From Micavibrio sp. (GTDB lineage: Bacteria; Pseudomonadota; Alphaproteobacteria; Micavibrionales; Micavibrionaceae), in NCBI GenBank assembly GCA_012960155.1, contig DUBU01000019.1, forward strand, positions 34,849 through 91,160: a stretch of DNA of 56,312 nucleotides, given 5' to 3'. This document shows positions 3,866 to 22,502 of this stretch, one piece after another. Made by a program: the position numbers and the translations under genes. Position 1 is the first letter of the stretch; every line of letters begins with the position of its first letter. The notes under the pieces were generated by a model, which had not been told where the DNA came from, ran no database searches, and worked only from the letters and a program-made list of their open reading frames with translations.

Positions 3866-4597
3866 CTATTTCTTTTTAAGAACGTCCCAAGTCTCGATGA
3901 CAATGCCTTCACGACCGCCTTCAGCTACGCGTCCCAACTGCACACGGATAAACACCTTCTCGGTCAAGAATTGATCGCCTTGATTGGATGTCATTTCACG
4001 GTAATCCTGTGCGCCGACGGGCAAGAACGTCATAATCAAAGGCACATCGTAGACCCAGCGATAGACATTACCGACAACACCGGATGTACGAAGCTGCGGA
4101 ATACCGTCAATAAAGGTTTTTAGCTCATAATTATTACTGCGCATCAGCTCAACCGCCTTAATACGGCGTAGAAACTTGTTATATTCGCTAATACCGTTGG
4201 CGCTCATAAACTCTTTCAGGCTCTCCTGATGCGCCGCGTAGGCAGCTTCATCCGTAGGCGCAAAAGTCAGAGATTCGGCAACGGCCTGCATAACCCATTT
4301 ATTAATCGCGCCTTCATGCAAATGCGGCAAATTCATATCAACAGAAACGCGTTCTGTTCCCAGCGGCGTGTATTCAACACCGATACCCGCATCGCCGATT
4401 GCCTCCAACGGGCGCGCATCAGCAAATGGCGCCGTTTGTGTTTCCAGCGCCTGAATTTCTTCTTCATCAACAAACATTTCAGGGAACATGGCTTCTAACG
4501 GATTGGGAATACCGTTATTTCTTTGCACGATCGCCGCAATATTGGAAATCAATATCACAAAAGCAAACAGTGCTAGTATCAGACCTAACGTGCGCAT
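3866..4597 (-). CDS. Membrane-anchored protein of unknown function (possible DotI/IcmL-like fold)
   Basis: This 243-aa protein begins with one hydrophobic segment (residues 4-24, GLILALFAFVILISNIAAIV) and then a soluble, presumably periplasmic domain. The C-terminal third (YRWVYDVPLIMTFLP, FIRVQLGRV, GIVIETWDV) alternates like a beta sheet and weakly resembles the DotI/IcmL/TraM domain of type IVB secretion and conjugation. That resemblance is an impression, not a demonstrated match. No other Dot/Icm gene is in the window. It starts 30 nt after the COQ9 gene and is probably cotranscribed with it. Confidence 0.5.
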   Translation of the reverse strand: MRTLGLILALFAFVILISNIAAIVQRNNGIPNPLEAMFPEMFVDEEEIQALETQTAPFADARPLEAIGDAGIGVEYTPLGTERVSVDMNLPHLHEGAINKWVMQAVAESLTFAPTDEAAYAAHQESLKEFMSANGISEYNKFLRRIKAVELMRSNNYELKTFIDGIPQLRTSGVVGNVYRWVYDVPLIMTFLPVGAQDYREMTSNQGDQFLTEKVFIRVQLGRVAEGGREGIVIETWDVLKKK

Positions 4598-7450: not shown

Positions 7451-8899
7451 TTATAGAGAGGCAGTCGGTCCTGAAGGCTTCTTAAGCGCTTCAATATTGC
7501 ACTTGGTCAACAGAACTCTAAACTCATCCTTATACTTGGTCTTGTTCATGTCCTTCAGATTTAACCAGACAGTATTCACTAGCTGTTCAGAACGGCCTGA
7601 CCAATACCCTGTATCCATCATCGCCTGCAGACTATCGGTTTCCTGCAATACATCCAGAAGGCTTTTGCCACCTTCTTTAGCAGGCTGCAACAGATCCTCA
7701 TCCGTCAGATACTCGCCAGACTCCTTCAAAAGCATCATGACCTTATCAAACTGACCGTATTTAGCGGCTTTGATCAAACAGCTTTCACCATCATTACCCG
7801 ACGGGGCACGAAGCGTTTCAAGTTTGATGACTTCACCTTTAGATTTCAGAACTTCAGCCACCTTATCCATATGCTCCCAAGTCTTCTTAAGACCCAGCGC
7901 CATAACAGGCGTCGCGTGCGGCCCTGCAGCGGAATCATTGAACAAAGGCGTCAGTAGATCACTCAAATTAACATCAGGGCCAGTTAGCAGCTCGACATTC
8001 AACTGGTCTTCAATTACGCCTGTCAGAACCGCATCAATATCAATCTTAGAGGCCTGCGCATCGTTCAAACGGTTGAAAACCTCCATCAGATCGCCTGGAC
8101 GACCTTTAAAGACCTCGCGGTTAAAAATCTTATCTTCCAGATCATGCTTAAATGCTGACCCGACAATAGAGTCACGATCCCCACGTTTAAAGAAGAAAAA
8201 CTCAGGGTCCATTACCTCACCAGCCGCCACTAGAGCAGCATGAATTTTTTCGAATTTTTCCCATGAAGCTTTAGCATAAAGCGTATGATCACCTTCACGG
8301 TCTACAAGCTTCACATCATCTAATGTCAGCTGCAAACCTGCATCAGCCAACTTGGCAACGAACTTATCCAAATCCCCTGTACCAAACGCAGTACGAACTT
8401 CAGAAGTCTCTATACCCGCCTCCTTCAGCACAGCAGCACGTGTCTTTTTACCACTCAGAGCTGCAATCTTGGCCTGCAGCTCATAGAAATCTACGTCCTT
8501 GCGCTTATCTTGCTTCAATGAGAAAAACAGATTTTCAAACTCTTCAGCATGACCTTTCCAAAGCTCTGGCTCAAAAACATGCCCAATTGAATCACACTCT
8601 GCCGCCATATCGATAGCAGATTTAGAATCAGCAATCGTTTTACCTAAATCGCGGTGCGTAATTGTTTCACCGTTTTTCGCGGCGAGCTTCAAAACCTTAT
8701 CAAAAGACTCCCATGTTTTGGCGAACTGGAAAATGCTCTTGCCGTTTGGCGCTACAGAGAACATATCCGACTTACTGATCTTCCCGCCTTCTTGCAGCAG
8801 ATCACCCATATCTTCATCCAGCTCAATGCCTTCGAAGATTTCGTGGTCACGTCCAAAGCCGAGTGACATACCCAATACAAAAAGTTTCGCCTTATTCAT
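7451..8899 (-). CDS. Ankyrin-like repeat protein, last gene of the VWA/MoxR cluster
   Basis: This 482-aa soluble protein is predicted all-helical. Several stretches read like degenerate ankyrin repeats: NDGESCLIKAAKYGQFDKVM near residues 367-386, PNGKSIFQFAKTWESFDKVL near 51-70, and DGDHTLYAK-type segments, each a short turn followed by paired helices with WE(K/S)F or hydrophobic pairs. No catalytic motif, signal peptide or membrane segment is seen. Its start overlaps the stop of the 117-aa gene by 8 nt, so it is translationally coupled to the MoxR-type ATPase gene upstream. A role as substrate-recognition or regulatory partner of that ATPase is inference. It could equally be an unrelated helical-repeat protein. 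Confidence 0.65.
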   Translation of the reverse strand: MNKAKLFVLGMSLGFGRDHEIFEGIELDEDMGDLLQEGGKISKSDMFSVAPNGKSIFQFAKTWESFDKVLKLAAKNGETITHRDLGKTIADSKSAIDMAAECDSIGHVFEPELWKGHAEEFENLFFSLKQDKRKDVDFYELQAKIAALSGKKTRAAVLKEAGIETSEVRTAFGTGDLDKFVAKLADAGLQLTLDDVKLVDREGDHTLYAKASWEKFEKIHAALVAAGEVMDPEFFFFKRGDRDSIVGSAFKHDLEDKIFNREVFKGRPGDLMEVFNRLNDAQASKIDIDAVLTGVIEDQLNVELLTGPDVNLSDLLTPLFNDSAAGPHATPVMALGLKKTWEHMDKVAEVLKSKGEVIKLETLRAPSGNDGESCLIKAAKYGQFDKVMMLLKESGEYLTDEDLLQPAKEGGKSLLDVLQETDSLQAMMDTGYWSGRSEQLVNTVWLNLKDMNKTKYKDEFRVLLTKCNIEALKKPSGPTASL

Positions 8900-9245
8900 C
8901 TTTATTTACCTCGTAAAAAACGGTTTTTCCCTGCCCATGACGACTGCACACGCGTCTAATAACATTACGCGTAATCGAAGCATCCTGAGGGACGTAGATA
9001 GTTTTAATTCCAGGAGCAAAAAACGCCTGCTCCAATTCAAAGCCGTTACGCACAGTCAATGTGTCCGTATCACGGCGCAGCAGGTCACTCTCCCAACCCG
9101 CGGTAATCTCGTACAGATAAGACTCTCCGGCCTTATAAGGCACAGTGTCTGAAACTTTGGCGCGGGCAACATAAGGTGCCATATGGCGTGCTAGCTCGTC
9201 CGCAGTTCCTCTGAACGTCTTCTTTTTATTGTCGGTGTTACGCAT
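8892..9245 (-). CDS. Hypothetical 117-aa protein of the VWA/MoxR cluster
   Basis: A small, strongly basic, soluble protein (begins MRNTDNKKKTFRGTADELAR). The second half alternates hydrophobic residues in a beta-rich pattern (GIKTIYVPQDASITRNVIRR). No recognised domain, signal peptide or membrane segment. AGGAG lies 8 nt before its ATG. It sits 11 nt after the ATPase gene and overlaps the ankyrin-like gene by 8 nt, so it is a fixed member of the cluster and may be an adaptor. Function unknown. Confidence 0.65.
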   Translation of the reverse strand: MRNTDNKKKTFRGTADELARHMAPYVARAKVSDTVPYKAGESYLYEITAGWESDLLRRDTDTLTVRNGFELEQAFFAPGIKTIYVPQDASITRNVIRRVCSRHGQGKTVFYEVNKDE

Positions 9246-9256
9246 TCAGATAGCTC

Positions 9257-11866
9257 CTATAAAGGCTTCTGTTCTGCAATGCTTTCAGTCAGATATTGTG
9301 GCTTATGGTTGACCACATCACGGCTGAGAAGCAGATCACTTACGCGCTTATCGCACCAATCATCACCGTTAGTCAGGCTATTACGCATCATGAACGCGCC
9401 TTTCAAATCACGACTGGCTTCTTTCGTATCGGCACCAGCGACAAAGCGAAGACCACTGCGCAGAACCTTAACGGCTTCAGCATCATTACGATCGACATAA
9501 TATGTACGGCTGTCATTAAAGGCACGTTTAAGACTGCTATCAATCTCGCCCTCGCCGACCACAACCACACGATCCGTATGCTTGTTCCAGATAACATGAA
9601 GCGGCACTTCTTTAGTGCGATCATCACTGGCGACAGTAACCGTCGTCATGGCCAGATCAGCATCTTCATCATTATCGGCGATCATCAGACTAGTATCCTT
9701 CAATCCTTCCACGCCTTTTGAAATACCATTATGATCCGCTAATGTCTGCTTCCACAAAGATACAAGATTATGCTCACGCAACTTCGGCGCCGCCAATGTG
9801 GCAAGTAGAGAATATTGCGAAACCATAGTATCAAGACTTGGCTTATTCGCCTGTCCCTCGACCATAGCCACCTCCGTCAGAGGCTCTGATTCCAGTATTT
9901 CAGGATCACGGCTAAAGACCAGGACATTACGCTCGGCATCAAACTCGGGGGCGACATCCTCACGAAGCATATCTTCCATTGTGCGCTTCAATACGCTTGT
10001 TGGCAGAATGTCGTCATTGTCATTGCTGATCTCGGGATATTCACGACGCAGATAGTTGCACATCAAATCCTGTACAAGCATCAAACGGCCTTCAAGATCC
10101 TTATTTTCAAATGGATTTTCGTCCAGAAGCTCTGCAAATGTGCGGCGATTACTTGCCATACCTTCAATCAGATGAGGATCAACAATCCCGCATTCAGCAG
10201 CAAACTGCATCAACTGGTTGCCCAGATCATCTTTCTTACGCTCATACGTGTTGGAAATAATCCAGTCCAGAATAACGTAAGTCATATGCGTACCCATCTT
10301 ACGACGGATATCTTCAGGTGACTCGGTCACATCCATAGGATCAATCAACGGCTCGATATCAGGCGCACCCGGACCTTGCGGCGGTCTAACCGACGGCTTG
10401 TCCATGAACGCCTTATTAATAAAGAACGTAATCTTACGGAAGTCGATCGACGCTTCGCGCTTAAAGCTGTCACTAATATCATCCAGCAGCTGAGAAAGCT
10501 TACCGATCTTCTGCCAATCTGAATCAGGGTCAACCGCCTTGGCTGTCGAGTCTAGAAACTCGGCCAGATTTTCAGTTGCCTGCATCACATCCTGCCAGCG
10601 ACGTAGCATCGCGAGCTGGTGCTGTGGCACTACGCGCTCTTCACGCAACATACGCCACTCAACAAGCTTCTTACCAAACTCCTCAGGATTCTTGTCCCAC
10701 ACATCGCTTTGCGCGTTATAGAGCGTTGAGATCGGAATACCTGTCAAAATCTGACAAATACGGTGCTGCCAGCCTTGCACAGTGGCTTTAGGAATATGCT
10801 GTGGCACAATACGTGAGCTCAGCGCTTCAGGGATTTCCAGCACTTCATCACTGTCATCTTCAAGGTTACCTGTCATAAAGACAAAGTGACCTGACGCCAT
10901 CTCATCACGCTTGAAGTGAAGGTGCGTTTTACTACTATCACCCTTTTCTTTCAACGGATTACGAACGCGACAATCATCAATCTCGTTAATGATAAACTGC
11001 ATCCAGCCATGAAGAACACCGAACGTGCCACGCTTGGCGCGGTTCACCTCATCAAGGATCAGAACGCGGCCTTCTTTATAAGCTTTCCAAGCAACACCTT
11101 CTTGCGTTGCCATACCCAGCGAGTTACCGCCAAGCTTGTCCAGACCTTCTTTCGTGCTGACCTTTTTCAGGCCGTCAATCGCGCGTTCGATACTTTCTTT
11201 CGTATCAAGTTTCTTACCGTCCTCATCTTTATGTGCGTCTTTAACACCTGCCCAGTCGATACCGATCTTATGACCTTCACGAGAGAACGCATCACCCAAG
11301 CAATCCTCAAGAATATCAATCGACATCGGGTTAAAGATATGGTCTCGATCTTCCTGAGTTTTCGCGGCGTTATACTTCTCGATCTTGCTGTTCAGCGCAT
11401 CATAGAAATTGGCGTTGGCATTGAAATCCAGAACCGTTTCAAAGAACAGCTCGTTCAAATTCATATCGGTACAATCAACCTTGATCGCGCCTTCCGGTGA
11501 AATCGTCTTGCCTGACAGTTCACCCAAGAATGTTTTACCCGCACCCGGCGCACCTTTTAGGAACATCGCACGGCGCTCGTTACGCGGATCCATGGCACTC
11601 ATCACCTCATAGAAGAGCGGCAACATTTCAGGCGTAGGCATATTTCTTATAAGTGTACCTTCAATGTCGTCCAGATCGCGCTCTGAGGTAACATTTAACG
11701 GCTTATCCAACGTACCCAGAAAGCGGGTAAGCGTGCGCTTACCCTTATCATCAGTCACATAACCAACACCCATCATAGGATATGGCACGCGCGATCCGAG
11801 CGGCTTGGCTAATTTACGATAGTCTTCTGCTGTAAGTGCCTTTGCAGGCTTCTTTAAAATGCTCAC
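9257..11866 (-). CDS. Large MoxR/CobS-like AAA+ ATPase
   Basis: This 869-aa protein has one AAA+ module in its first half: Walker A GAPGAGKT near residues 105-112, sensor-type regions, Walker B VLILDEVNRAKRG near 268-280, and FVFMTGN followed by ALSSRI (sensor 1 and arginine-finger region). Walker B DEVNR and the pattern after it are typical of the MoxR/CobS branch, which work with VWA-domain proteins as metal-chelatase or chaperone machines. Usual MoxR and CobS proteins are about 300-350 aa, so roughly 500 extra C-terminal residues of unknown fold are present. The start is GTG at 11866 with AAAGG upstream. The gene lies 188 nt after the VWA gene and 11 nt before the 117-aa gene. There is no sign of cobalamin genes, so a cobaltochelatase role is unlikely. 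Confidence 0.85.
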   Translation of the reverse strand: MSILKKPAKALTAEDYRKLAKPLGSRVPYPMMGVGYVTDDKGKRTLTRFLGTLDKPLNVTSERDLDDIEGTLIRNMPTPEMLPLFYEVMSAMDPRNERRAMFLKGAPGAGKTFLGELSGKTISPEGAIKVDCTDMNLNELFFETVLDFNANANFYDALNSKIEKYNAAKTQEDRDHIFNPMSIDILEDCLGDAFSREGHKIGIDWAGVKDAHKDEDGKKLDTKESIERAIDGLKKVSTKEGLDKLGGNSLGMATQEGVAWKAYKEGRVLILDEVNRAKRGTFGVLHGWMQFIINEIDDCRVRNPLKEKGDSSKTHLHFKRDEMASGHFVFMTGNLEDDSDEVLEIPEALSSRIVPQHIPKATVQGWQHRICQILTGIPISTLYNAQSDVWDKNPEEFGKKLVEWRMLREERVVPQHQLAMLRRWQDVMQATENLAEFLDSTAKAVDPDSDWQKIGKLSQLLDDISDSFKREASIDFRKITFFINKAFMDKPSVRPPQGPGAPDIEPLIDPMDVTESPEDIRRKMGTHMTYVILDWIISNTYERKKDDLGNQLMQFAAECGIVDPHLIEGMASNRRTFAELLDENPFENKDLEGRLMLVQDLMCNYLRREYPEISNDNDDILPTSVLKRTMEDMLREDVAPEFDAERNVLVFSRDPEILESEPLTEVAMVEGQANKPSLDTMVSQYSLLATLAAPKLREHNLVSLWKQTLADHNGISKGVEGLKDTSLMIADNDEDADLAMTTVTVASDDRTKEVPLHVIWNKHTDRVVVVGEGEIDSSLKRAFNDSRTYYVDRNDAEAVKVLRSGLRFVAGADTKEASRDLKGAFMMRNSLTNGDDWCDKRVSDLLLSRDVVNHKPQYLTESIAEQKPL

Positions 11867-11918
11867 GATAGACCTTTCCCTGTTCGGCGCACCCTATTGA
11901 GCGAGTGCTTTATTTTTT

Positions 11919-11991
11919 GAGACTTCTGTCTCGGTTTTTTTAATTTTTTAGCGCTATTTTTCTTAAGCTTCCGCAGCTTAGCGCAATTTTT
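11919..11991 (+). other. Two tandem terminator-like hairpins in the VWA-MoxR gap
   Basis: Between the two minus-strand genes, GAGAC-ttct-GTCTC (11919-11932) is followed by GG and seven T, and a second structure (GCGC 11951-11954 and TAAGCT 11964-11969 paired with AGCTTA 11975-11980 and GCGC 11981-11984) is followed by AATTTTTTT. The T-tracts are on the plus strand, where no gene is read. On the minus strand the same hairpins lie in A-rich leader of the ATPase gene. They may block antisense transcription or set differential mRNA stability. Confidence 0.45.
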
Positions 11992-12054
11992 TTAAAAGTT
12001 TAAGCCTGAAATTGTATTTTTCTAATGTTTTTCAGGTCTTTTTCACTCCAGATT

Positions 12055-15000
12055 TTACTTCAGGCCTAAGTGGCGCTGAGCACGCTGGAATTCCTTACGT
12101 TTAACAGCCCACGGGACTGCAACGAAACTCTTGAAAGAACGTATTTTCTCGAACAACAAACCGATAATACCAACAGCAATGCCTTCCGCCTCGGTCGCGT
12201 GATGAATACCGATTTTCTTCTTCGGATTCATACCACGTATCTCGCGGGCGGCGTGCTCCATCTGGGTCTTTGTCTGATTCTTATTCATGATCGCAAAATC
12301 CAGCGTGGTGTAGTTGCTATATTGGAACAACGTTTCGACAGCCTTTTTCGAAGGCTCCTTATCACTGATATCTCCATCAGAGATCACCATCATATGCGTA
12401 TGACCGCTATATTTGCCGCTCTTATGCTCTGACAAAACCTTTGTAATTTTATTGATAGACGGCGCCAGATTCGTACCGCAATTAAGCCCCTTACGAGCCT
12501 TCAAAAGATTTTCACCGATCTTCTTCGGGTCATCCTTCGGCGTTGCCAACATTAGCGGCTCATCGTTACCCCACAACGCGATGAACACATTGGCATCGAC
12601 CGCCTTAGCGGCCTCATACAGCACAACACTGGACATCAGCGCGACTTCCATAGGCGTAGCTTTGCCATGAATCATGTTCGTACTATTCATACTACCCGAA
12701 CCATCAATCAACAAAACGATGTCAATTGTCGTTGGCTTATCGGCAGTCTTATCTTTTTTGAAACGGTGTAAATCTTCTTTTTCGAGCTCTTCGCCTGTCT
12801 CACGCTTGATAATCAGATTGCGGTGCGCGTCCATGTCCAGACGGTCCATTTCCATGCCTTCGGGAATCATTTCCAGCTCACGGGAACGTTTTACCGTCTT
12901 CTCAACCTGCATATCGCGTATCTTTTCCATTACGCGGCGTGTCTGGTTGATATACGGCTTAAGTTCAGCAACCATCGCGGGGTAACTCTTCCATTCACCG
13001 CTAGCAATTTCGTCCAAAGTTTTCTCGGCACCGCCATCACCGGCCTGATCGGACGCTTCATCCCCCTCGCCTTCACCGTCACCTTGACCATCAGAAGGCT
13101 TACCATCTTGACCAGGCTCTCCTTCGCCATCCCCTTCACCGTCAGCATCCTGCCCATCTTGACCATCTTGCTGCTGCTGCGCTTCTTCCTGCGCTTTCTT
13201 CATAGCTTCTTCGAGTGCTTTTTTCAGCTCCTCAATTGTCTTGGCGCGCTTGTCCTTGCTGTCTTTGCCGTCTTTTTTATCTTGACCTTGTTGCCCCTGC
13301 TGGCCTTGCTGTCCCTGTTGGCCCTGGCTTTGCTGACCGTCTGCATCTTGGCCATCGGCATCCTGACCGTCCTGCCCTGGCTCATGGCCTTCAGGCGCCT
13401 CGGAAGGTGTATCAACATCAGGCATATTCTCGTGCGAACCATCGGCCTTTTCGACATCAACCTTGTCATTTTCGTCTTTGCTTAGGCCTTCAGATGAAGA
13501 ATCAAATTCATCTCCATCACCTTGCTGCGAGTCCTCGCGGCTATTCTCACCAAACGGCTTATCATCTTGGCCGTACTGGTCATTCTGCTGCTGACCTTGT
13601 TGGCCTTGCTGATCCTGTCCCTGCTGGTCTTGACCCTGTTGATCCTGACCTTGGCCATCTTGTTGCTGGCCGTCTTGTTGCTGGCCGTCTTGCTGATCTT
13701 GAGATCCTTGATCTTGCCCGTCTTGTGGCTGACCATCTTGTTTCTGGCCATCCTGTTTTTGATTATCTTGCTGCTGGCCATTCTGAGGTTGCTGCTGTCC
13801 TGACTGGCCTTGTTGCCCTTGTTGTCCTTGCTGCCCCTGTTGGCCCTGCTGACCTTGTTGTCCATCTTGCTGCTGGCCATCTTGACCATCCTGACCATCT
13901 TGTCCGTCACCATCTTGGCCGTCCTGATCCTGACCGTCAGCATCCTGATCCTGGTTCTGCTCATCACTGAGCTGCTCATCAAGTTCTTCTTCAAGATTCT
14001 GCAGTATCTCTTGCGCCAGAGGCTCAACATACAGATCCCACATCTGCTCGATCAATTCATTACGGCTGCGCGACAGCTTACTAATCAAGCCGTCATAATA
14101 CGCCTTACCAAACCAACGATCTTTGGCCTTGGGCAATAACGATTGAAGACCGCCATCCGGTCCACACATCGCCATAAGCTGTCTAAAGTCTTCGGGCAGC
14201 TTACGACCACCACTACCCTTAGCAAAAGTCTCGGAAAGTGTCGGCGCCTTACCATCTTCATCAGGACGCTTCACAACCTTCTTAGGATCTACCCCCATTA
14301 GCTTCCAGCCATCAGGCGTATCATCGAAAAGTCCGTTATTACGATAGAAGCTGAGCTCTACAGCACGCAGAACATTGACAAAGCGCTTCTCTGGCGTATC
14401 GCCGATTTGCTTTAGAGCGCCCTTCAACTGTGAAAGCTGCTGATTGGCCAGCTGACGAATCTCGCCCGGCACTTCACTATCAGGATCATCAAGTAACTCC
14501 TGAAGCTGCTTGATTTTATCTTCAAGCTCGACGCGCATCTGCTCTTCGGCCGCATCTTGCTGATCAGCCATAGCGCCTTTACCCTGCAAACGATCAAGGG
14601 CAATGCCGCCAAAAGGCTTTATGGTCATCATATTATGATTAAGAGAATAGCCGTAATCCTGACCAGTCTTCATACCGCGCTCGACAGCAAACGCACCAGC
14701 CACCATCTTCTCGGCAGTTTCCCAGAAACGCGTGCGCATTTCCCATTCAAGGCTAGCCTTACGCAGGGCTTTGTAGTCTTTTGCCGACAAGCCGCCCCAA
14801 TCCTCTTCGCGCTTTTTCAGCGTCAGGATTTTTTCGCGCAGCTCTTTATTTTTATCAGGATAGGAAACACTGTAGCGCGCATAGCCCATCTGACGGAACA
14901 GTTCGGCATTGGCGTGTTCCAAGCCCATGATAAGGCTTTGCAGGAAATCAAACGTCACTTCACCTTCACGGCGATCATAAGCAAAACCACTTTGCCAGCC

Positions 15001-15492
15001 ACCCCAGCCAAACTTCAAACCAGGCTGACGCAATTCTTCCATCACCGCGCCTGCATTCTTGGTAAGCGTTTCAATAGCATATGGAGAGCTCTCCAACGCT
15101 AGCCACAGACGTGTGTCACCAATCCCCTTATTCATCGGGTAATCGCTCCACGTCGTCAGATTGGCACTAAGATCTTTGTTGGCATAAAGAATAGTCGCGG
15201 CCCACAATAACTGATGCGCAGGATCAGACAAATTGGCTGGCTTATCTGTATACGGATGGCCATTTTCCATGGCAAAGGCCGCATTCGCTTTTTCTTTAGC
15301 AAAGGCTTCTTTGTTGCGCGCACATTTTTCAAGGTTTTTGACGAAGGATGCATATTCATTGGAATCGATCGCCCCATTTGGCTCGGCAGCACGACGCGCC
15401 AAAGCCATACGAAGCCTCGTCAGCGGATCCGCTAAAATGTTTTCAGCACGGAACTTCTTTGCCCTGCTATGCCTTAAAAAGGCGCTCTTCAT
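12055..15492 (-). CDS. CobT-like VWA protein with long Gln/Asp/Gly linker
   Basis: This 1145-aa protein has three parts. Residues 1-510 are a helical N-terminal region of no recognised family. Residues about 511-820 are a low-complexity stretch dominated by G, Q and D triplets (DGQ, GQQ) interrupted by a charged coiled-coil-like segment (TIEELKKALEEAMKKAQEEA). Residues about 870-1145 hold a VWA domain with the MIDAS motif DGSGS (in VLLIDGSGSMN), a conserved Thr region (GLNCGTNLAP) and VISDGDISD. An acidic linker followed by VWA is the layout of CobT and of VWA partners of MoxR ATPases, but CobT is about half this length. It is first of four cotranscribed genes with the AAA+ partner next. Inferred role: metal-dependent adaptor binding a client for the ATPase. 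Confidence 0.82.
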   Translation of the reverse strand: MKSAFLRHSRAKKFRAENILADPLTRLRMALARRAAEPNGAIDSNEYASFVKNLEKCARNKEAFAKEKANAAFAMENGHPYTDKPANLSDPAHQLLWAATILYANKDLSANLTTWSDYPMNKGIGDTRLWLALESSPYAIETLTKNAGAVMEELRQPGLKFGWGGWQSGFAYDRREGEVTFDFLQSLIMGLEHANAELFRQMGYARYSVSYPDKNKELREKILTLKKREEDWGGLSAKDYKALRKASLEWEMRTRFWETAEKMVAGAFAVERGMKTGQDYGYSLNHNMMTIKPFGGIALDRLQGKGAMADQQDAAEEQMRVELEDKIKQLQELLDDPDSEVPGEIRQLANQQLSQLKGALKQIGDTPEKRFVNVLRAVELSFYRNNGLFDDTPDGWKLMGVDPKKVVKRPDEDGKAPTLSETFAKGSGGRKLPEDFRQLMAMCGPDGGLQSLLPKAKDRWFGKAYYDGLISKLSRSRNELIEQMWDLYVEPLAQEILQNLEEELDEQLSDEQNQDQDADGQDQDGQDGDGQDGQDGQDGQQQDGQQGQQGQQGQQGQQGQQGQSGQQQPQNGQQQDNQKQDGQKQDGQPQDGQDQGSQDQQDGQQQDGQQQDGQGQDQQGQDQQGQDQQGQQGQQQNDQYGQDDKPFGENSREDSQQGDGDEFDSSSEGLSKDENDKVDVEKADGSHENMPDVDTPSEAPEGHEPGQDGQDADGQDADGQQSQGQQGQQGQQGQQGQDKKDGKDSKDKRAKTIEELKKALEEAMKKAQEEAQQQQDGQDGQDADGEGDGEGEPGQDGKPSDGQGDGEGEGDEASDQAGDGGAEKTLDEIASGEWKSYPAMVAELKPYINQTRRVMEKIRDMQVEKTVKRSRELEMIPEGMEMDRLDMDAHRNLIIKRETGEELEKEDLHRFKKDKTADKPTTIDIVLLIDGSGSMNSTNMIHGKATPMEVALMSSVVLYEAAKAVDANVFIALWGNDEPLMLATPKDDPKKIGENLLKARKGLNCGTNLAPSINKITKVLSEHKSGKYSGHTHMMVISDGDISDKEPSKKAVETLFQYSNYTTLDFAIMNKNQTKTQMEHAAREIRGMNPKKKIGIHHATEAEGIAVGIIGLLFEKIRSFKSFVAVPWAVKRKEFQRAQRHLGLK
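13590..13960 (-). repeat. Minisatellite-like 9-bp repeats encoding the Gln/Gly/Asp linker
   Basis: The coding DNA here consists of imperfect 9-bp units (encoding G-Q-Q, D-G-Q and related triplets). A shorter related block is at about 13270-13340. Such arrays change length by slippage, so linker length may vary between strains. Codons vary between units (CAG/CAA, GGC/GGT/GGA), suggesting the array is old and under selection for amino-acid content. Confidence 0.75.
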
Positions 15493-15664: not shown

Positions 15665-17662
15665 TTACGCAGCTATTCTGCGTTCCAGATAATCGTGAAT
15701 ACGAACATATTCGGATTGAATTTGTTGATGAGCAGCATTGATATTATCAGCATCTGTTTGGCTTAAACTTTGCGCCTTATCACATAGCTGCGCCATCATA
15801 CCCGCGCCGAAATGCGAACAAGCCCCATACATTTTATGAGCGACCGCATTCCATTCATGAAAATCACCTGCCGCCAAGCTCCTCTCAAGGCGATCCATAT
15901 CTTCGGACAAGCTTTCGATAAAAATACCCAAGACATGATTCTCGGTTTCCTTATCACCCTCGGTGAATTCATCCAGATGCTTCCAATCGATAATGTCAGC
16001 CTGTGATGTTTGATGCTGTGCTGTTTGGGTCGGCACAAAATCACCGGGCAACCACTGCCCCAGTATATTGACCAGTTTATCTTTTTCTACAGGCTTGCTG
16101 ATATAATCATCCATTCCAGCCTCTCGGCATTTTGTCGCCGCGCCCTTCATCGCATCTGCCGTGACCGCTACAATAACAGGCGCCGCGCCGCTATCCTGTT
16201 TTTCTCGAATACGCCGCGCCACCTCAAAACCATCCATTTCAGGCATCTGGCAATCCAGTAAAATCAAGTCGGGATTATCGCGATCATAGAGATCAAGCGC
16301 TTCATGACCACTCGACGCCGTTTCAAATTTTGAGAAGCCGAGATCGCGCATCATCTTACGCATAAATAACAAGTTCACAGGGTGATCATCGACAATCAAA
16401 ATGCGCGCACTTAAATCCAAGCCTACGATCTGTGCGTAAGGTTCGCTGTCATCAGCCTCCGCCTGTTTCTGTGAAACTTGCAGCGGCAAATGGATCGAGA
16501 AAATTGTCCCCTCGCCCTCACGACTACTAAGCTTAATACGGCCATCCATAAGCGCCACAAGATTACGGGTGATCGCAAGCCCTAAACCTGTACCTCCATA
16601 TTTACGCGCTGTTGAACTATCCCCTTGCTGGAATTTTCCAAAAATTTTGGACTGCTTATCGCGGGGAATACCAATGCCTGTATCTCTGACTTCAATACGG
16701 GCATAGTAGATATCATCATGATCTCTCTCGCCGCTCACGCGTATTTTTACGCTGCCCTCATGAGTGAATTTAAGTGCATTACTGACCAAATTATTTAAAA
16801 CCTGCTGCAAACGTGCAGGATCGCCAACAACATATTTAGGTATATCGCGATCAAACTCACATATGAACTCTAGCCCCTTACTTTCGGCCATAGGCTTTTG
16901 CAGCTTCGCGATTAACTGTACGGTCTTCACAAGATCAAAATCAATTGCCTCGATCTGTAACTCTCCCGCTTCTATTTTAGAGAAGTCCAGAACATCATTC
17001 AGGATGATAAGCAGATTACGCGCAGACGCATTCACAGCATCCGCAAGCTCGTGCTCTTCATTTGCTAGATTGGCTTCAGCCAGCATAGCGGATAGGCCGA
17101 TAATCCCATTCATCGGCGTGCGTAATTCATGCGACATGTTCGCCAAGAACTCGCCACGGGCGCTGTTAGCACGCTCAGCCTCCTGCCGTGCTTGATCCGC
17201 AAGCTCCCGACTTTTCTGCAACATTGACTCGTAAGCCTTACGATCAGAAATATCATAGCAATAGACAATGACTGTCATATTTTCGCCGAGCCCAGACCGT
17301 GCGATAGTCTGCGCGTAGACAATGTCGTCAACAACAACTTCGCGAGTGACAACACTGCGCTCTTGAGACAAGCTAAGCACCCCATCCAGAATGTCATGCT
17401 CCAGACCGTCCTCTCGTATCTCCGGAAAGCGCGACATCGCAATAGGATTGGCGAACAAAATCTGGCCGCCAGCGGACAACTGAATTAGAGGGTACGGATT
17501 ATTCAAAGCGAGCTGGACAATTTCTTCCGTCTCGCGCTTGGCAAGCCGCAAAGCCGCGCGAGAACGGCTCAGGCTTCTACGGTACAAAAAACAAACGACC
17601 GCAAGCATCACGACAAGAATCGCAATCAATGCATAGATATAGTTTATATCTTCTATCAGCAT
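15665..17662 (-). CDS. Hybrid histidine kinase (TM-PAS-HisKA-HATPase-REC-Hpt)
   Basis: This 665-aa kinase has one N-terminal membrane helix (about residues 8-27), a PAS-like segment (40-145), HisKA with phospho-acceptor His in ANMSHELRTPMNG (near 177), HATPase_c (G boxes DTGIGIP and GGTGLGL), a receiver with Asp in LLDCQMPEMDGFE (near 470), and a C-terminal Hpt domain with His in AVAHKMYGACSHFGAG (near 607). It therefore holds all relay steps except the output regulator. It is the last gene of the eight-gene operon, 18 nt after the response regulator gene. Likely partners are that regulator and the divergent PhoB-type regulator at 31353. Confidence 0.9.
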   Translation of the reverse strand: MLIEDINYIYALIAILVVMLAVVCFLYRRSLSRSRAALRLAKRETEEIVQLALNNPYPLIQLSAGGQILFANPIAMSRFPEIREDGLEHDILDGVLSLSQERSVVTREVVVDDIVYAQTIARSGLGENMTVIVYCYDISDRKAYESMLQKSRELADQARQEAERANSARGEFLANMSHELRTPMNGIIGLSAMLAEANLANEEHELADAVNASARNLLIILNDVLDFSKIEAGELQIEAIDFDLVKTVQLIAKLQKPMAESKGLEFICEFDRDIPKYVVGDPARLQQVLNNLVSNALKFTHEGSVKIRVSGERDHDDIYYARIEVRDTGIGIPRDKQSKIFGKFQQGDSSTARKYGGTGLGLAITRNLVALMDGRIKLSSREGEGTIFSIHLPLQVSQKQAEADDSEPYAQIVGLDLSARILIVDDHPVNLLFMRKMMRDLGFSKFETASSGHEALDLYDRDNPDLILLDCQMPEMDGFEVARRIREKQDSGAAPVIVAVTADAMKGAATKCREAGMDDYISKPVEKDKLVNILGQWLPGDFVPTQTAQHQTSQADIIDWKHLDEFTEGDKETENHVLGIFIESLSEDMDRLERSLAAGDFHEWNAVAHKMYGACSHFGAGMMAQLCDKAQSLSQTDADNINAAHQQIQSEYVRIHDYLERRIAA

Positions 17663-17680
17663 GGGCTGCTAAAGCAGCAT

Positions 17681-18589
17681 TTACATCGCCGTGCGACCAT
17701 AGGCCGTGTCACGAGCCTGCTGCTTCTCCTTTATATAAGGTGATTTGTGGATGTACTGGAACATCTTGTCACGCGTAAATGGCTTGCCTACAAAGCCTTC
17801 GGCGCCAATATCGAGCGCCCGCATGATATGGCTTTTATCTTTCATACCACTGAACATAATGACATAGGCATTTGGGTCCATCTGGAATATACACTCCAGA
17901 ACCTCGAACCCGTTCATATCGGGCAAGCCAATATCTAAAAATACAGCATCGGGCGCACTCTTGGCGTAAGAAGAAATTGCCTCTTTACCGTTGGCTCCGA
18001 AGGCCAAAAGATAATCATTCTGTAAAACATTACCAACCAAGGTACGCGTAATTTGATCATCTTCAACAATCATAACCATGGGCTCACGGCGATTACGGCG
18101 ACGTTCTGCAATCGACGCCAGTAAAGCCGGATCTAATTGCTCCAACGCTTCCAAAGTTGATCTATCTGCCCCTTCTTTGCGTTCAGACTCCAGCCTTTCT
18201 GCCTCAGCCTCTTCTGCTGCAGCCATCTTGCTGCTACACAGCGCTTCAATTTTGTATTTATGGGGCCCCGCATCAAAAACATCGGCGAGCGCCAATAATT
18301 CTTCCGATTGAAATTCACGAGCAAGCTTGGTAACGAAATCTTCAAACTGGCGCTGCATGAAACCGCGCACCAATATGAAAACATCTTTGTCATTACAAAT
18401 ATAGACCTGCGCAACATAAGATTCAGGAAGCTCGTTCAAAAGCTTTAAAAAAGCTCCCAGCAATTCTTGCTTGGGGATATCGGACTTTGATAGGCCTAGA
18501 TAAAAGCATTTCAGACTGGAATCCTCTTCATCAAAATGCTGCATTTCGAGTAGTAGTCTTTTTTCCGCATTTTTAGCAATAACAATCAT
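17681..18589 (-). CDS. Response regulator with uncharacterised N-terminal domain
   Basis: This 302-aa protein has a C-terminal receiver (from about residue 165, VMIVEDDQITRTL; phospho-acceptor Asp in VFLDIGLPDMNGFE near 218; conserved Lys in VGKPFTRDKM). The N-terminal 150 residues (begin MIVIAKNAEKRLLLEMQHFDEED) belong to no family I recognise. The RR encoded at 47689-48558 has the same order and length, with a similar RR(N)RR(E/D)xxVMIVEDD junction, so this is a paralogous pair. There is no DNA-binding domain; the N-terminal part is presumably the output or sensory module. AAGGAGG precedes the start. It lies between two hybrid kinases in the operon. Confidence 0.85.
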   Translation of the reverse strand: MIVIAKNAEKRLLLEMQHFDEEDSSLKCFYLGLSKSDIPKQELLGAFLKLLNELPESYVAQVYICNDKDVFILVRGFMQRQFEDFVTKLAREFQSEELLALADVFDAGPHKYKIEALCSSKMAAAEEAEAERLESERKEGADRSTLEALEQLDPALLASIAERRRNRREPMVMIVEDDQITRTLVGNVLQNDYLLAFGANGKEAISSYAKSAPDAVFLDIGLPDMNGFEVLECIFQMDPNAYVIMFSGMKDKSHIMRALDIGAEGFVGKPFTRDKMFQYIHKSPYIKEKQQARDTAYGRTAM

Positions 18590-18607
18590 ACACCCAACCT
18601 CCTTAAA

Positions 18608-21544
18608 TTAAGCCGCCCTTCTCTCAAAAGCGCGCTCTGTTTCATTCAACATCCCTTCAACAGCAACCATTAATTTTTGAATAGTCGCCGCATCACCACC
18701 TTCACCAGCAACGATTGATTTCGCCTTATACTCAACAAGCTTGGCAAGATCACCAAGGCGCAGCGCACCCATCTGATTACTTGTAGATTTCAGACTATGC
18801 GCAGGCCGTATTGCTGCTTCGACATCGCCTTTTTCCAGAGCGGCGTTGATCTCCGCGACCCGCTCATGACAATTATCTATATAGACATCCACAGTTTCGA
18901 AATACTTATCCTTCAATACATTGCGGGCATCCTCGACGGCCTTATCGTCTAACACTTCATCCTCGAGATTAGCAGGCTGTGGAATATGCGATGGCATTTC
19001 TGACACTAAGGGCTTCCCGACTACCAATCTGTACACGACATCTTGCAGCTCACGCTTTCTGACGGGTTTAGCCAGATAGTCCTGCATTCCGGCCTCTAAA
19101 CACTTCTCCCTATCCCCCTTCATGGCATTTGCAGTCAGAGCAACAACGGGCATATCCGATCTGATCTTAGCTTGCTCTTTCAATTCAACAATCTGACGAG
19201 AAGCCTCAAAGCCATCCATCACCGGCATCAAACAGTCCATAATCACAAGATCGTAAGAACGCCTGCGCAGAGCATTGATAGCCTCCTTGCCATTAGAAAC
19301 GACGGTATAAGACGCATCCATCTCCTCGAGGATTTCTTTAATGAACACTTGGTTCACAAGGTTATCTTCTGCCACAAGAATATTTGCATCAGGAAGCTTT
19401 AGGGATTCGCTTTCTTTATATTCACGCCTAATGCCGCCCGTATCCACACGGATCAGAACATCCCGATACCCCAATTGGTACTTCTCCCAAATCACAGCCA
19501 GGCTTTCTACGAATTTCTGCTGAGCAACAGGCTTGGCGATATAAGCAGAGAAACCTTTTTCAGCAAATATATCGTCGCTAAAAGAGTTGCCGGCAGCTGT
19601 CATCAAGATCAAGCATGTATCACGCAAATAAGGGACATCGTTAATCGCACGTGCTAGCATTTCACCATTCATAACAGGCATCAAGTAATCAAGTATCACA
19701 ATGTCGTAAGGCTTCTTGTCCTTGTAAGCACGCTGCATCTTCATCAGCGCTTCCGCTCCACTCTCCGCAACAGAACATTCCATGCCTGCCACCCTGAGCT
19801 GTTCCGAAACCAGCTGACATACAATGGGCAGGTCATCAACGACTAGCACACGAATATTTTGTAAAACTGCCGGCTTAGCAGCAGAATGCGCTTCTTCACG
19901 ATTTCGAGTAAACGGAATCGTGACAATGAACTCAGATCCGTGACCTTCGACACTACTAACGCTTATCTCGCCGCCCATCATGTGAACAAGACTTTTCGTG
20001 ATAGACAGCCCGAGACCGGTGCCACCATATTTGCGCGTCGTAGAATTATCTGCCTGTGAAAATTTCTCAAAAATGCACTTTTGCGCCCCCTCACTCATCC
20101 CGATACCAGTATCTGCAACCTTGATTTTCAGACTCACCTTATCTTCTGGCATAGCCTTCATACGATCTTCATCGATCGAGATAATAACGTGACCTTTATC
20201 TGTAAATTTAATCGCATTACTAAGCAGGTTTCCAATAATTTGCCTCATTCGCGAAGGATCAGCGTATATAAACTGTTCTGTACCGGGGGCATAATGAGCG
20301 ACAAGCTCTACAGCTTTATCTCTAGCTTTGACAGAATATAAACTAGCGAGCTCATCAACTAGATCGAGTAAGTCGACCGGCATAGGATCAAGCTCTAGTC
20401 TTCCTGCCTCGATCTTCGAAAAATCTAGAATATCGTCAACAATTTGCTGAAGAGTCTCGCCGGAATTAATAATGATTTGTGAATAACCGCTAATCTGCTG
20501 CGACGGCTTTGCGTCCATAATCAGTTCAGCCATGCCTAGGATACCATTCATAGGCGTTCTGATCTCATGGCTCATGGTCGCCAAAAAATCGGATTTAAGG
20601 CGATTGGCCTCTTCAGCTTTTTGAGTAACGTTGACAAGCTTTGAGGCCATCATTTTCATCTGCCACATATACAAGACAGCCGCAGTTAGCGCTAAAAAGG
20701 CTAAAAAGATAATAAACGCTATGTAGGTGTGGCCCTCCGCCAAAAACGTTTTCGTTGGCGAATACTCAACAAATAAATTGAGATCAGAAAGCCTGGCAGT
20801 AAAACTATAACGATATGGGGCGGCATCCAGAAGATCACCGAATTGATAAACATTAATAGACGTACCGGTAGAATTTTGAGCAGTAACATCAATTGCATAA
20901 GTTTGAAAGTCTTCGCTTCCAACAACTTCACGAACAAAATATTCAAAATCAAGAATACTAAAAGCTATACCTAATAGCTCATTGTTCTCTCCTACAAAAA
21001 CAGGCTTAAATAAAAACAAATGGTACTGCTGATCACCGCCTGATATACGGTGAATATCTTTGAATAGAACATCCTCCAGAGTACCCAAAAAATGTGTTAT
21101 CTCCCGCTTATCAATTGCGGTATGCACCATATCATACAGAGCTGTATCTGGAATTATACGGCGACCTTTAAAACGGCTGTGCGTATTAGGTTCGATCTGA
21201 CGCCAGTAAAATTCGTCTTTTTTATCATTAAAACTTATCCAGCCCAGAGCATCGAAACTACCATGGTTACTAAAACTAGATTGCGTAAAGATAGAAAACT
21301 CCTGATCATCTACCGCCTCAGAAGCCAAGTATAAATTCTTAATATTTTCCAAAACATCTTCATGCCAATACAGGTTTCGAAGCACACCCGTAAAGCTCTG
21401 GCTAGCGAAGCTACGAAAACTCTCTTCGGCCCTTTTTTGCTGCGCATTTAATGCCATCCACGACATCAAAAAGGAACATCCCAAACCTAATATCAATATG
21501 ACAGCGTAAAGATATCGATCTTTACCAAGTCCCTTTATCACCAT
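18608..21544 (-). CDS. Hybrid histidine kinase with CHASE-type sensor, two REC domains and Hpt
   Basis: This 978-aa protein starts with a membrane helix (about 11-32), a periplasmic region of some 240 residues of CHASE type ([27 protein letters not shown]), and a second membrane helix (about 272-295). HisKA follows with His in [13 protein letters not shown] (near 325), HATPase_c ([15 protein letters not shown]), receiver 1 (VLVVDDLP, Asp in [12 protein letters not shown] near 618), receiver 2 (ILVAEDN, Asp in [12 protein letters not shown] near 775) and Hpt with His in [15 protein letters not shown] near 914. CHASE domains bind small periplasmic ligands, so this is the probable signal input of the operon. 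Its start overlaps the REC-HATPase gene by 7 nt. Confidence 0.92.
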
Positions 21545-22497
21545 TCCAACCGACCCTTACGGCTCATATAGGCTACAGCCTGATTGCCTTTTTCATTATA
21601 CTTTAACTTATCAAAGCTCATTGTATTAGCCTGGGCAATTCCACGGCCATGATTGTCACCTGCACGTGCCGGATCAATCGTCATATATCGCTGCCACTGA
21701 AAACCTTCACCCTGATCCTCAATTATAACATAAACACCGTCGTCCTTGTGAGCGACAGTAGCCGTCGCATAACGATTGGCATATTTATCAGACTCAAGCA
21801 TACGTTCTATTTCCGCACGCCAAGTACCATTATCAATCAGTGCTGTCTTACGCTCATATCCCAAACCAAGATTACCGTGTTCTATCGCATTAATCAGCAA
21901 TTCACCGAGACCTGATAGTACACGCTCGGTATCGGGAAAACAGTTAGCGATAAAGGCCGCCAAGCTCTCGGCTTCGGCCAAGGTTCTGAACTTGAACTTG
22001 CAAGTATCAATCAAATCAAAACTGGCTTTGTGCTTACTAAGCTCTTCCGACAACGTTCTATTTTGCTGCGCCTCACGAATAGCTGCCGCCAGTACAGAAC
22101 GCAGTATATTGTCATCTACAGGTTTGGTTAAATAATAGAAGACACCGGCATCAAGGCCTTCGGTCAATTCACCTTTTGAATCAGCACTAGTCACCATAAC
22201 GACAGGGATATTGCGCAAATCACGATTTTCTTTAATACGCATCACGGCGGTCAAACCGTCCATGACAGGCATCTCACGATCCATCAGAACAACATCGATA
22301 CTATCCTTTTGCTCGCTCAAAATACGGAGCGCTGACTCACCATCAAAGGCTTTAACAATGTTGTGCCCTAATGCTGCGATCTGGGATTCCAGAAACTGCA
22401 TAGACACATTATCATCTTCAACCGCCAGTATATTAATCGGCGCGCTGTTATCTAAAAGTCTGTAATCTACATTATACTCAAGAGCTTCACGCGCCAT
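21538..22497 (-). CDS. REC domain fused to RsbW-type serine-kinase-like HATPase
   Basis: Residues 15-140 of this 319-aa protein form a receiver (ILAVEDDNVSMQ, Asp in VLMDREMPVMDG near 71, Lys in LTKPVDD). A linker helix leads to a C-terminal ATP-binding domain of the HATPase_c_2 (RsbW/SpoIIAB) type: N box ELLINAIEHGNLG (near 200-212), G1 box EDQGEGFQW and a terminal HGRGIAQA box. There is no HisKA, so it is not a classical histidine kinase. Such REC-RsbW fusions often control anti-sigma partner switching, but no STAS or sigma partner is in the window. It lies 5 nt after the HlyD gene and overlaps the CHASE kinase start. Confidence 0.85.
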   Translation of the reverse strand: MAREALEYNVDYRLLDNSAPINILAVEDDNVSMQFLESQIAALGHNIVKAFDGESALRILSEQKDSIDVVLMDREMPVMDGLTAVMRIKENRDLRNIPVVMVTSADSKGELTEGLDAGVFYYLTKPVDDNILRSVLAAAIREAQQNRTLSEELSKHKASFDLIDTCKFKFRTLAEAESLAAFIANCFPDTERVLSGLGELLINAIEHGNLGLGYERKTALIDNGTWRAEIERMLESDKYANRYATATVAHKDDGVYVIIEDQGEGFQWQRYMTIDPARAGDNHGRGIAQANTMSFDKLKYNEKGNQAVAYMSRKGRLEW

Positions 22498-22502
22498 GGT
22501 AT

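What the first reader, a model, noticed from the sequence alone, without database searches (positions are those of the whole stretch)
7451..15492. Four-gene VWA / giant MoxR-type AAA+ / 117-aa orphan / ankyrin-like cluster
The four genes lie on one strand in fixed tight order, with an 11-nt gap, an 8-nt overlap and one 188-nt structured gap. MoxR ATPases and VWA proteins are known partners in metal-insertion and chaperone machines. Here both are far larger than usual (869 and 1145 aa) and are joined by two genes I cannot match to any named system. No cobalamin, magnesium-chelatase, methanol-dehydrogenase or restriction genes are nearby. A dedicated AAA+ remodelling machine with a helical-repeat recognition subunit is the inference.
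Basis: partly seen in the sequence, partly recalled or inferred. Interest (0 to 1): 0.75.

Follow-up and report, generated by a model that had tools for sequence, protein, structure and literature searches.

The report
AAA+ machine with ankyrin-protein family
Bacteria related to the predator Micavibrio carry a conserved gene set for an ATP-driven protein-remodelling machine, and most genomes with it are also unusually rich in ankyrin-repeat proteins, which may be what the machine works on.

Summary
Genes, lengths and spacings are as described. The ATPase is found in 33 of 142 genomes of the order (probably Micavibrionales). VWA precedes it in 35 of 35 testable loci; the 117-aa gene follows in 33 of 36. 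The ATPase is MoxR-type (model fits NorQ best, Z 17.4). Motor and MIDAS residues are conserved. CobN was found in 0 of 33 of these genomes, so it is not a cobaltochelatase.

The fourth protein is weakly ankyrin-like. Its last ~120 residues recur as a C-terminal module on 57 of 60 fetched proteins encoded elsewhere, often in tandem arrays of conserved order. The module occurs in 29 of 33 genomes with the machine and 0 of 109 without; outside the operon it was listed only in families f160 and f162. More than 11 Ank_2 matches occur in 25 of 33 against 0 of 109; family f1 alone is not significant. Some of these genes lie beside type IVB secretion genes.

Best reading: a NorQD-like MoxR/VWA chaperone with a new third subunit, acting on ankyrin proteins through a shared C-terminal tag. 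The machine type is well supported; client and secretion roles are inferred. New variant of a known kind.

The parts
12055..15492 (-). VWA protein, 1145 aa: N-terminal part of unknown family (about 1-480), Gln/Gly/Asp-rich linker (about 481-870), VWA domain (924-1080)
   Evidence: VWA_2 E 3.8e-06; composition and motif counts
12253..12723 (-). VWA domain with intact MIDAS (D930, S932, S934, T1007, D1039)
   Evidence: D, S, S and the distal D in 27 of 27 rows, T in 26 of 27
11867..12054 (-). 188-nt spacer between VWA and ATPase genes, AU-rich and predicted structured
   Evidence: RNA fold -40.9 kcal/mol, z -3.1; 38% mean column identity among seven spacers; mostly a 4-nt overlap in f160
9257..11866 (-). 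MoxR-type AAA+ ATPase, 869 aa
   Evidence: AAA_5 E 2.5e-06; model pLDDT 82; NorQ Z 17.4, rmsd 3.0, 253 aligned
11531..11554 (-). Walker A (residues 105-112)
   Evidence: K111 in 24 of 24 rows with letters
11039..11056 (-). Walker B (residues 271-276)
   Evidence: D272 and E273 in 25 of 25 rows
9260..10177 (-). C-terminal extension of the ATPase (residues 564-869), beyond the region matched to NorQ; fold not identified, and not searched by itself
   Evidence: NorQ rows end at residues 560-563
8892..9245 (-). 117-aa third component, small alpha/beta protein
   Evidence: 27-row alignment; model pLDDT 86; no convincing PDB fold
7451..8899 (-). 482-aa ankyrin-like protein
   Evidence: 22-row alignment; profile against PDB ankyrins E 9e-05; Ank_2 alone is below cut-off, E 0.076
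7469..7837 (-). C-terminal module (residues 355-477) shared with ankyrin proteins encoded elsewhere in related genomes
   Evidence: profile-profile E 8.8e-30, 128 columns
3866..4597 (-). DotI/IcmL-like gene near the operon (context, not part of the operon)
   Evidence: PF11393 E 6.5e-07, 29.4 bits against cut-off 27.7; homologues at the same site in L055 and L059, and in L084, L085 and L195, where only the 117-aa gene is present

Best explanation
The cluster encodes a MoxR AAA+/VWA protein-remodelling machine that works like NorQ/NorD, with a new small third component. Shown by sequence and model: an AAA+ motor of MoxR fold with its catalytic residues, a VWA partner with an intact MIDAS on a long low-complexity acidic tether, and close gene linkage with the 117-aa protein. 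Inferred: the ATPase forms a ring, the VWA domain docks on it and grips a client through the MIDAS, and ATP hydrolysis remodels the client. Inferred clients are ankyrin-repeat proteins. The operon's own ankyrin-like protein is the type client or adaptor, and its C-terminal ~120-aa module is a docking tag that other ankyrin proteins in the same genome carry. Inferred with less weight: some of these ankyrin proteins are substrates of the type IVB (Dot/Icm) secretion system that the order carries, and the machine prepares or delivers them.
For: MoxR fold: best NorQ row Z 17.4 and CbbQ2 16.9, first dynein row 14.4. Catalytic residues conserved. Gene order 35 of 35 and 33 of 36. Ankyrin profile A3 in 28 of 33 AAA+ genomes and 0 of 109 AAA- (Fisher 7e-25, not corrected for kinship). 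C-terminal module in 29 of 142 genomes, all among the 33. The module lies at the C-terminus of 57 of 60 fetched dispersed proteins, with net charge +3 or more in the last 25 residues of 50 of 57. Of 10 proteins scanned (9 of them dispersed), 5 have Pfam ankyrin repeats above cut-off and one exactly at it. AAA-negative G423 has 5; its seven AAA+ congeners have 15-47. Secretion link: in G334 VWA-AAA-ANK follow the dotO-like gene on the same strand, 1.7 kb away. Module genes lie within 5 kb of that gene in 8 f160 genomes (coordinates). A DotI/IcmL-like gene lies 2.9 kb from the operon in the window. Mechanism template: NorQD, passages of PMC9976466.
Against: No interaction was tested. Counts are not corrected for phylogeny; most of the signal comes from families f160 and f162. 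In f1 the module hits listed lie in the operon gene itself, so there the co-occurrence is only the operon's own linkage; hits outside the operon are listed only in f160 and f162 (list cut). Within f1 the ankyrin difference is not significant (p 0.078). G365, G367 and G320 are AAA+ with 0 Ank_2 matches, and G328 and G334 have 1. Four f160 genomes keep VWA-AAA-ORF without the operon's ankyrin gene, and second-type operons lack it. The small gene stands alone in G303, G313 and G372 and is under purifying selection between the last two, so it does something without the machine. DotO is in 138 of 142 genomes, so the secretion system is not co-distributed with the machine; it was not found in G002, G050 or G794, which have the ATPase. 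The DotI-like gene near the window operon stays at the same site where VWA, ATPase and ankyrin gene are absent. Of 23 dotO loci scanned (not including the f160 loci L167-L170), one, the window genome's, showed an ankyrin gene and none the module.
Confidence: 0.5

Rival explanations
1. A MoxR/VWA machine of a general kind (assembly of an envelope or respiratory complex, or stress response). Its link to ankyrin proteins is only shared lifestyle and ancestry: lineages living on other cells keep both.
For: Most of the ankyrin-rich genomes are two families. Module proteins outside the operon are listed only there. VWA-AAA-ORF persists without the operon's ankyrin gene in L064, L073, L074, L075. In f160/f162 many loci share the same chromosomal neighbours.
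Against: The ankyrin-like gene is in the operon, often with overlapping reading frames. Its C-terminal module is found in 29 of 33 AAA+ genomes and 0 of 109 others, although 54 of those 109 have Ank_2 matches.
Confidence: 0.28
2. A biological conflict (defence) system of the MoxR-vWA ternary type: the small or ankyrin protein senses an invader and the pair sets a threshold for an effector.
For: Core pair plus third component resembles the ternary systems of PMC7159879 (passages). Patchy presence, 33 of 142, and paralogous operons.
Against: No PADLOC match to any of the four proteins. The VWA protein ends 65 residues after its VWA match, with no C-terminal effector domain found. The ATPase has no match in plasmids, phages or viral contigs. 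f160 and f162 ATPases form one supported clade and many of their loci share neighbours, which speaks for vertical descent there.
Confidence: 0.12
3. A cobalamin or metal-insertion chelatase (CobS/CobT-like).
For: Same general architecture, AAA plus VWA with an acidic linker (recalled). A CobD/CbiB-family membrane gene lies one or two genes upstream of VWA in 10 f160/f162 loci (the one scanned, in L064, has PF03186 E 3e-19).
Against: CobN family PF02514 found in 0 of 33 AAA+ genomes, while 5 of 14 control genomes rang. CobT_C matched 2 of 27 VWA rows, at E 0.017 or weaker.
Confidence: 0.03

Closest known systems
NorQ/NorD (MoxR AAA+/VWA insertase of nitric oxide reductase)
   Same: MoxR AAA+ fold (Z 17.4, 253 aligned, 16% identity); separate VWA protein with N-terminal domain, flexible linker and C-terminal VWA with MIDAS (PMC9976466 passages)
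   Different: ATPase 869 aa against 30 kDa for NorQ, with long insertions and a C-terminal extension; VWA protein 1145 aa; extra third component; the linked fourth protein is ankyrin-like
CbbQ/CbbO rubisco activase
   Same: AAA+ fold nearly as close (6l1q Z 16.9)
   Different: No third component known to me (recalled); client differs
MoxR-vWA ternary systems (VMAP, iSTAND, FtsH, beta-propeller, TERNS3)
   Same: MoxR plus vWA plus a third conserved protein (PMC7159879 and PMC8195603 passages)
   Different: No effector domain found after the VWA; third component is a 117-aa alpha/beta protein encoded 3' of the ATPase; linked family of ankyrin proteins with a shared C-terminal module
Ankyrin effectors of Dot/Icm secretion (Legionella, Coxiella)
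   Same: Ankyrin proteins in bacteria with a type IVB system, some encoded beside dotO; that ankyrin proteins are type IV effectors I know from recall and from a reference title seen
   Different: Translocation untested here; a shared ankyrin-derived C-terminal module and a linked AAA+ machine are not part of that picture as I recall it

Membership tests
MoxR-class AAA+ ATPases | Walker A, Walker B, sensor 1 Asn, arginine finger | tested here: met
   Lys 24 of 24, Asp-Glu 25 of 25, Asn 25 of 25, Arg 25 of 25 rows with letters; motif names recalled
MoxR-class AAA+ ATPases | fold closest to solved MoxR proteins | tested here: met
   the ten top rows are NorQ or CbbQ, Z 15.4-17.4; the next row is dynein at 14.4, so the best stands 3 and the last 1 above it
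MoxR-class AAA+ ATPases | helix-2 insert | tested here: inconclusive
   the model has two short strands at 194-197 and 200-203 inside a long insertion between Walker A and B; not superposed in detail
MoxR/VWA pair | adjacent VWA gene with intact MIDAS | tested here: met
   35 of 35 loci; MIDAS residues in 26-27 of 27 rows
NorQ/NorD or CbbQ/CbbO proper | sequence family membership | tested here: inconclusive
   no NCBIfam hit for ATPase or VWA; no NorQ or CbbQ among PDB sequence matches; fold only
Cobaltochelatase CobNST | CobN large subunit in the genome | tested here: not met
   0 of 33 AAA+ genomes
MoxR-vWA ternary conflict systems | effector domain C-terminal to the vWA | tested here: not met
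   65 residues follow the VWA match (924-1080 of 1145), no domain found there
MoxR-vWA ternary conflict systems | VMAP, iSTAND, FtsH, propeller or TERNS3 third component | tested here: inconclusive
   no hit above cut-off for the 117-aa protein in Pfam or NCBIfam and none in PADLOC; not compared with those profiles directly
Ankyrin-repeat proteins | window protein (7451-8899) matches an ankyrin model | tested here: inconclusive
   Ank_2 E 0.076, below cut-off; profile A3 against PDB ankyrins E 9e-05
Ankyrin-repeat proteins | dispersed module proteins have ankyrin repeats | tested here: met
   Pfam Ank families above cut-off in 5 of 10 proteins scanned, one more exactly at cut-off, two below it, two with no hit
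Dot/Icm effectors | translocation by the type IVB system | not testable with these tools
   only gene neighbourhood was examined

The most novel reading that the evidence does not exclude
A dedicated AAA+/VWA loading machine for type IVB secretion: in this order of bacteria, known for predators of other bacteria (recalled), ankyrin effectors carry a C-terminal loading module that the VWA-ATPase-117-aa complex recognises and hands, remodelled, to the Dot/Icm apparatus. To my knowledge no effector chaperone of that system built on a MoxR/VWA pair is described.
Probability: 0.2. Interest if true: 0.85.

Novelty: new variant of a known kind. Interest (0 to 1): 0.62.

Why it matters
MoxR/VWA pairs are widespread but few have a known client (recalled). 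Here a client family is suggested by the genomes: a conserved module on many proteins, found only in genomes with the machine. That gives a short testable list of interactions, a new third component, and a possible link to the great expansion of ankyrin proteins in part of this order. If the secretion link holds, it adds a new step to how type IVB systems handle substrates.

Tried and rejected
Cobaltochelatase was rejected by the missing CobN. Named defence system: no PADLOC match. Mobile element: the ATPase has no match in plasmids, phages or viral contigs; the other three genes were not searched there. The TerD-like look of genes beside the lone small gene in L084 was my own reading and was not borne out for the one gene scanned (Pfam none, protein 10). 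Relation of the 117-aa protein to a part of the ATPase or VWA: none. PDB folds for the 117-aa protein: Foldseek gave no match at E 0.001 or better; best VIA-align Z 4.7, below what unrelated models reach. Ankyrin genes beside dotO as a rule of the order: not so. The A1 profile search of 398 genomes of the phylum, at E 1e-10, matched only the window genome. A single-protein class sample gave 5 of 289, the window genome included, one of them weak (E 8e-4). The ~620-aa downstream gene of the second-type operons looked like a replacement fourth gene; in L091 it reads as an ABC transporter (my reading of the sequence) and it was dropped. Of the genes upstream of the operon in the window (two-component and type I secretion), the kinase and regulator were used as queries and do not lie beside the operon in the other loci. 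Papers: PMC7159879, PMC9976466, PMC9418006, PMC8195603 and PMC4686830 were seen as passages only; others as search listings. That I found nothing in print describing this system rests on searches in one open-access library (two returned no paper).
Full report
Check of the observation. The four genes are at the stated places, on one strand, with gaps of 188, 11 and -8 nt. The window lies in a 2.58-Mb genome of 39 contigs. Named records fetched with the ATPase alignment include Micavibrio sp. UBA6147, Micavibrio sp. UBA2020 and a Micavibrio aeruginosavorus MAG, beside records titled only Alphaproteobacteria, Rhodospirillales or Rickettsiales.

Conservation. The ATPase has a relative in 33 of 142 genomes of the order. 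A class sample gave 5 of 289, window genome included and one weak; a profile search of a phylum sample at E 1e-10 gave only the window genome, 1 of 398. In 38 loci (window included) VWA is the next gene upstream in 35 of 35 where a gene is called. The 117-aa gene is next downstream in 33 of 36, followed at once by the ankyrin-like gene in 22. By profile the 117-aa family has 44 hits in the order; by coordinates 40 lie beside an ATPase hit and 4 do not (G303, G313, G372 and G328:C32). It was not found in the AAA+ genomes G289, G334 and G320. In a tree of 25 ATPases the first-type f160 and f162 rows form a supported clade, second-type f160 rows another, and f1 rows do not form one clade. The ATPase has no match in plasmids, phages or viral contigs.

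What the proteins are. Of named families, only AAA_5 and VWA_2 pass a curated cut-off for these four proteins; PADLOC gave nothing and PHROGs weak hits. The ATPase model (pLDDT 82) fits NorQ (Z 17.4, rmsd 3.0, 253 aligned) and CbbQ2 (16.9), ahead of dynein at 14.4. Walker A Lys, Walker B Asp-Glu, sensor-1 Asn and the arginine finger are conserved, as is the MIDAS of the VWA. The VWA protein has a Gln/Gly/Asp-rich stretch between its N-terminal part and the VWA domain. The 117-aa protein is a small alpha/beta protein without a convincing fold match. It stands alone in G303, G313 and G372, beside the same UbiB, COQ9 and DotI-like genes as near the window operon, with no remnant of the other three genes found by tblastn in L084 and L085 or L195. 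Its copies in G313 and G372 differ with dN 0.05 and dS 1.13, so it is maintained without them.

The ankyrin family. The fourth protein is weakly ankyrin-like (Ank_2 E 0.076; profile against PDB ankyrins E 9e-05). A profile of it hits 28 of 142 genomes, all among the 33 with the ATPase, and up to 11 places in a genome, mostly over its last ~125 positions (the number scored per genome is capped). I fetched 20 regions with such hits. They hold 60 proteins, 57 of which carry this module at their C-terminus; 50 of 57 have net charge +3 or more in the last 25 residues. Of 10 proteins scanned, 5 have Pfam ankyrin repeats above cut-off and a sixth exactly at it. By reciprocal best hits of the N-terminal parts alone they form 12 orthologous groups of two or more, several kept in the same gene order across genera of f160. 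So these arrays look old and stable, not fast-changing. The module profile is homologous to the last repeat of the operon protein (E 8.8e-30) and hits 29 of 142 genomes, all with the ATPase. In f1, G328 and G334 the places listed are in the operon gene itself; places outside the operon are listed only in f160 and f162, in 18 genomes (list cut). As a control for ankyrins in general, Ank_2 has matches in 84 of 142 genomes. This is not corrected for kinship. For f1, 7 genomes with against 107 without (the latter including some non-f1 genomes) gave p 0.078. In genus g263 the one genome without the ATPase, G423, has 5 matches; the seven with it (G420, G421, G422, G340, G331, G343, G424) have 15-47.

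Secretion context. A type IVB system is shown in G334 by DotN above the NCBIfam cut-off and DotI and DotH above the Pfam cut-off, with DotG and DotF below their cut-offs; in the window genome DotI and DotH are above cut-off. The DotO, DotE and DotP labels are mine, from gene order and similarity to L143; the library match of the DotO-like protein is only a weak one to TraC. DotO-like genes are in 138 of 142 genomes. That Micavibrionales hold this system type is in print (PMC9418006, passages). In G334 the order dotI-dotH-dotG-dotF-dotE-dotP(x3)-dotN-dotO-153 aa-346 aa-VWA-AAA-ANK runs on one strand, with 1.7 kb between dotO and VWA. In f160, module genes lie within 5 kb of dotO in G415, G416, G417, G418, G419, G337, G427 and G325 (coordinates), probably one ancestral arrangement. 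In the window a DotI/IcmL-like gene lies 2.9 kb beyond the ankyrin gene, but it is also at that site where VWA, ATPase and ankyrin gene are absent. Against a general rule, 23 dotO loci scanned (f160 loci L167-L170 not among them) showed an ankyrin neighbour only in the window genome. I noticed these adjacencies after the fact, so their weight is limited.

Mechanism. By analogy with NorQD (PMC9976466 passages) the ATPase ring would drive a VWA-bound client. The operon's ankyrin-like protein is the first candidate client or adaptor, and the shared C-terminal module the tag. The motor, VWA and linkage are shown; ring, client, tag and secretion roles are inferred. VWA-AAA-ORF persists without the operon's ankyrin gene in four f160 genomes, so the machine can have other clients.

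Verdict. Not ordinary and not an artefact: a conserved MoxR/VWA system with a new third component and a linked ankyrin family. New variant of a known kind.

Noticed in passing
L085:8469-8870, L084:8129-8578, L195:5809-6159: The 117-aa gene stands alone beside UbiB, COQ9 and DotI-like genes in genomes without VWA, ATPase or ankyrin gene, and is under purifying selection between G313 and G372.
   Followed up: partly
window 3866-4597: DotI/IcmL-like gene (PF11393 E 6.5e-07) in a UbiB-COQ9 neighbourhood seen in six loci, away from the main type IVB cluster on another contig.
   Followed up: partly
L172:14430-17440: Row of about five ~200-aa genes that look alike near dotO in G327, without Pfam match for the one scanned (L172:15640-16221).
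   Followed up: no
L171:13829-15046: Ankyrin protein (406 aa) third gene after dotO in the window genome, opposite strand, without a match to the operon's ankyrin profile.
   Followed up: partly
L165:9560-11097: Three DotP-like genes in a row in G334 (label mine).
   Followed up: no
L064:14046-15008: CobD/CbiB-AmpE family membrane gene just upstream of VWA in f160/f162 loci, next to a DksA-like gene (DksA label mine).
   Followed up: partly
window 11867-12054: Structured AU-rich spacer between VWA and ATPase genes (z -3.1), weakly alike in related loci.
   Followed up: partly
L092:10704-11936: Fourth gene of a paralogous operon: leucine-rich-like N-terminus by eye (no Pfam hit), with part of the ankyrin module near the C-terminus.
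   Followed up: no
window 15665-31208: Two hybrid histidine kinases, two response regulators, an HlyD protein, two ABC exporters and a 1123-aa protein without Pfam match at 1e-5 upstream of the operon.
   Followed up: no
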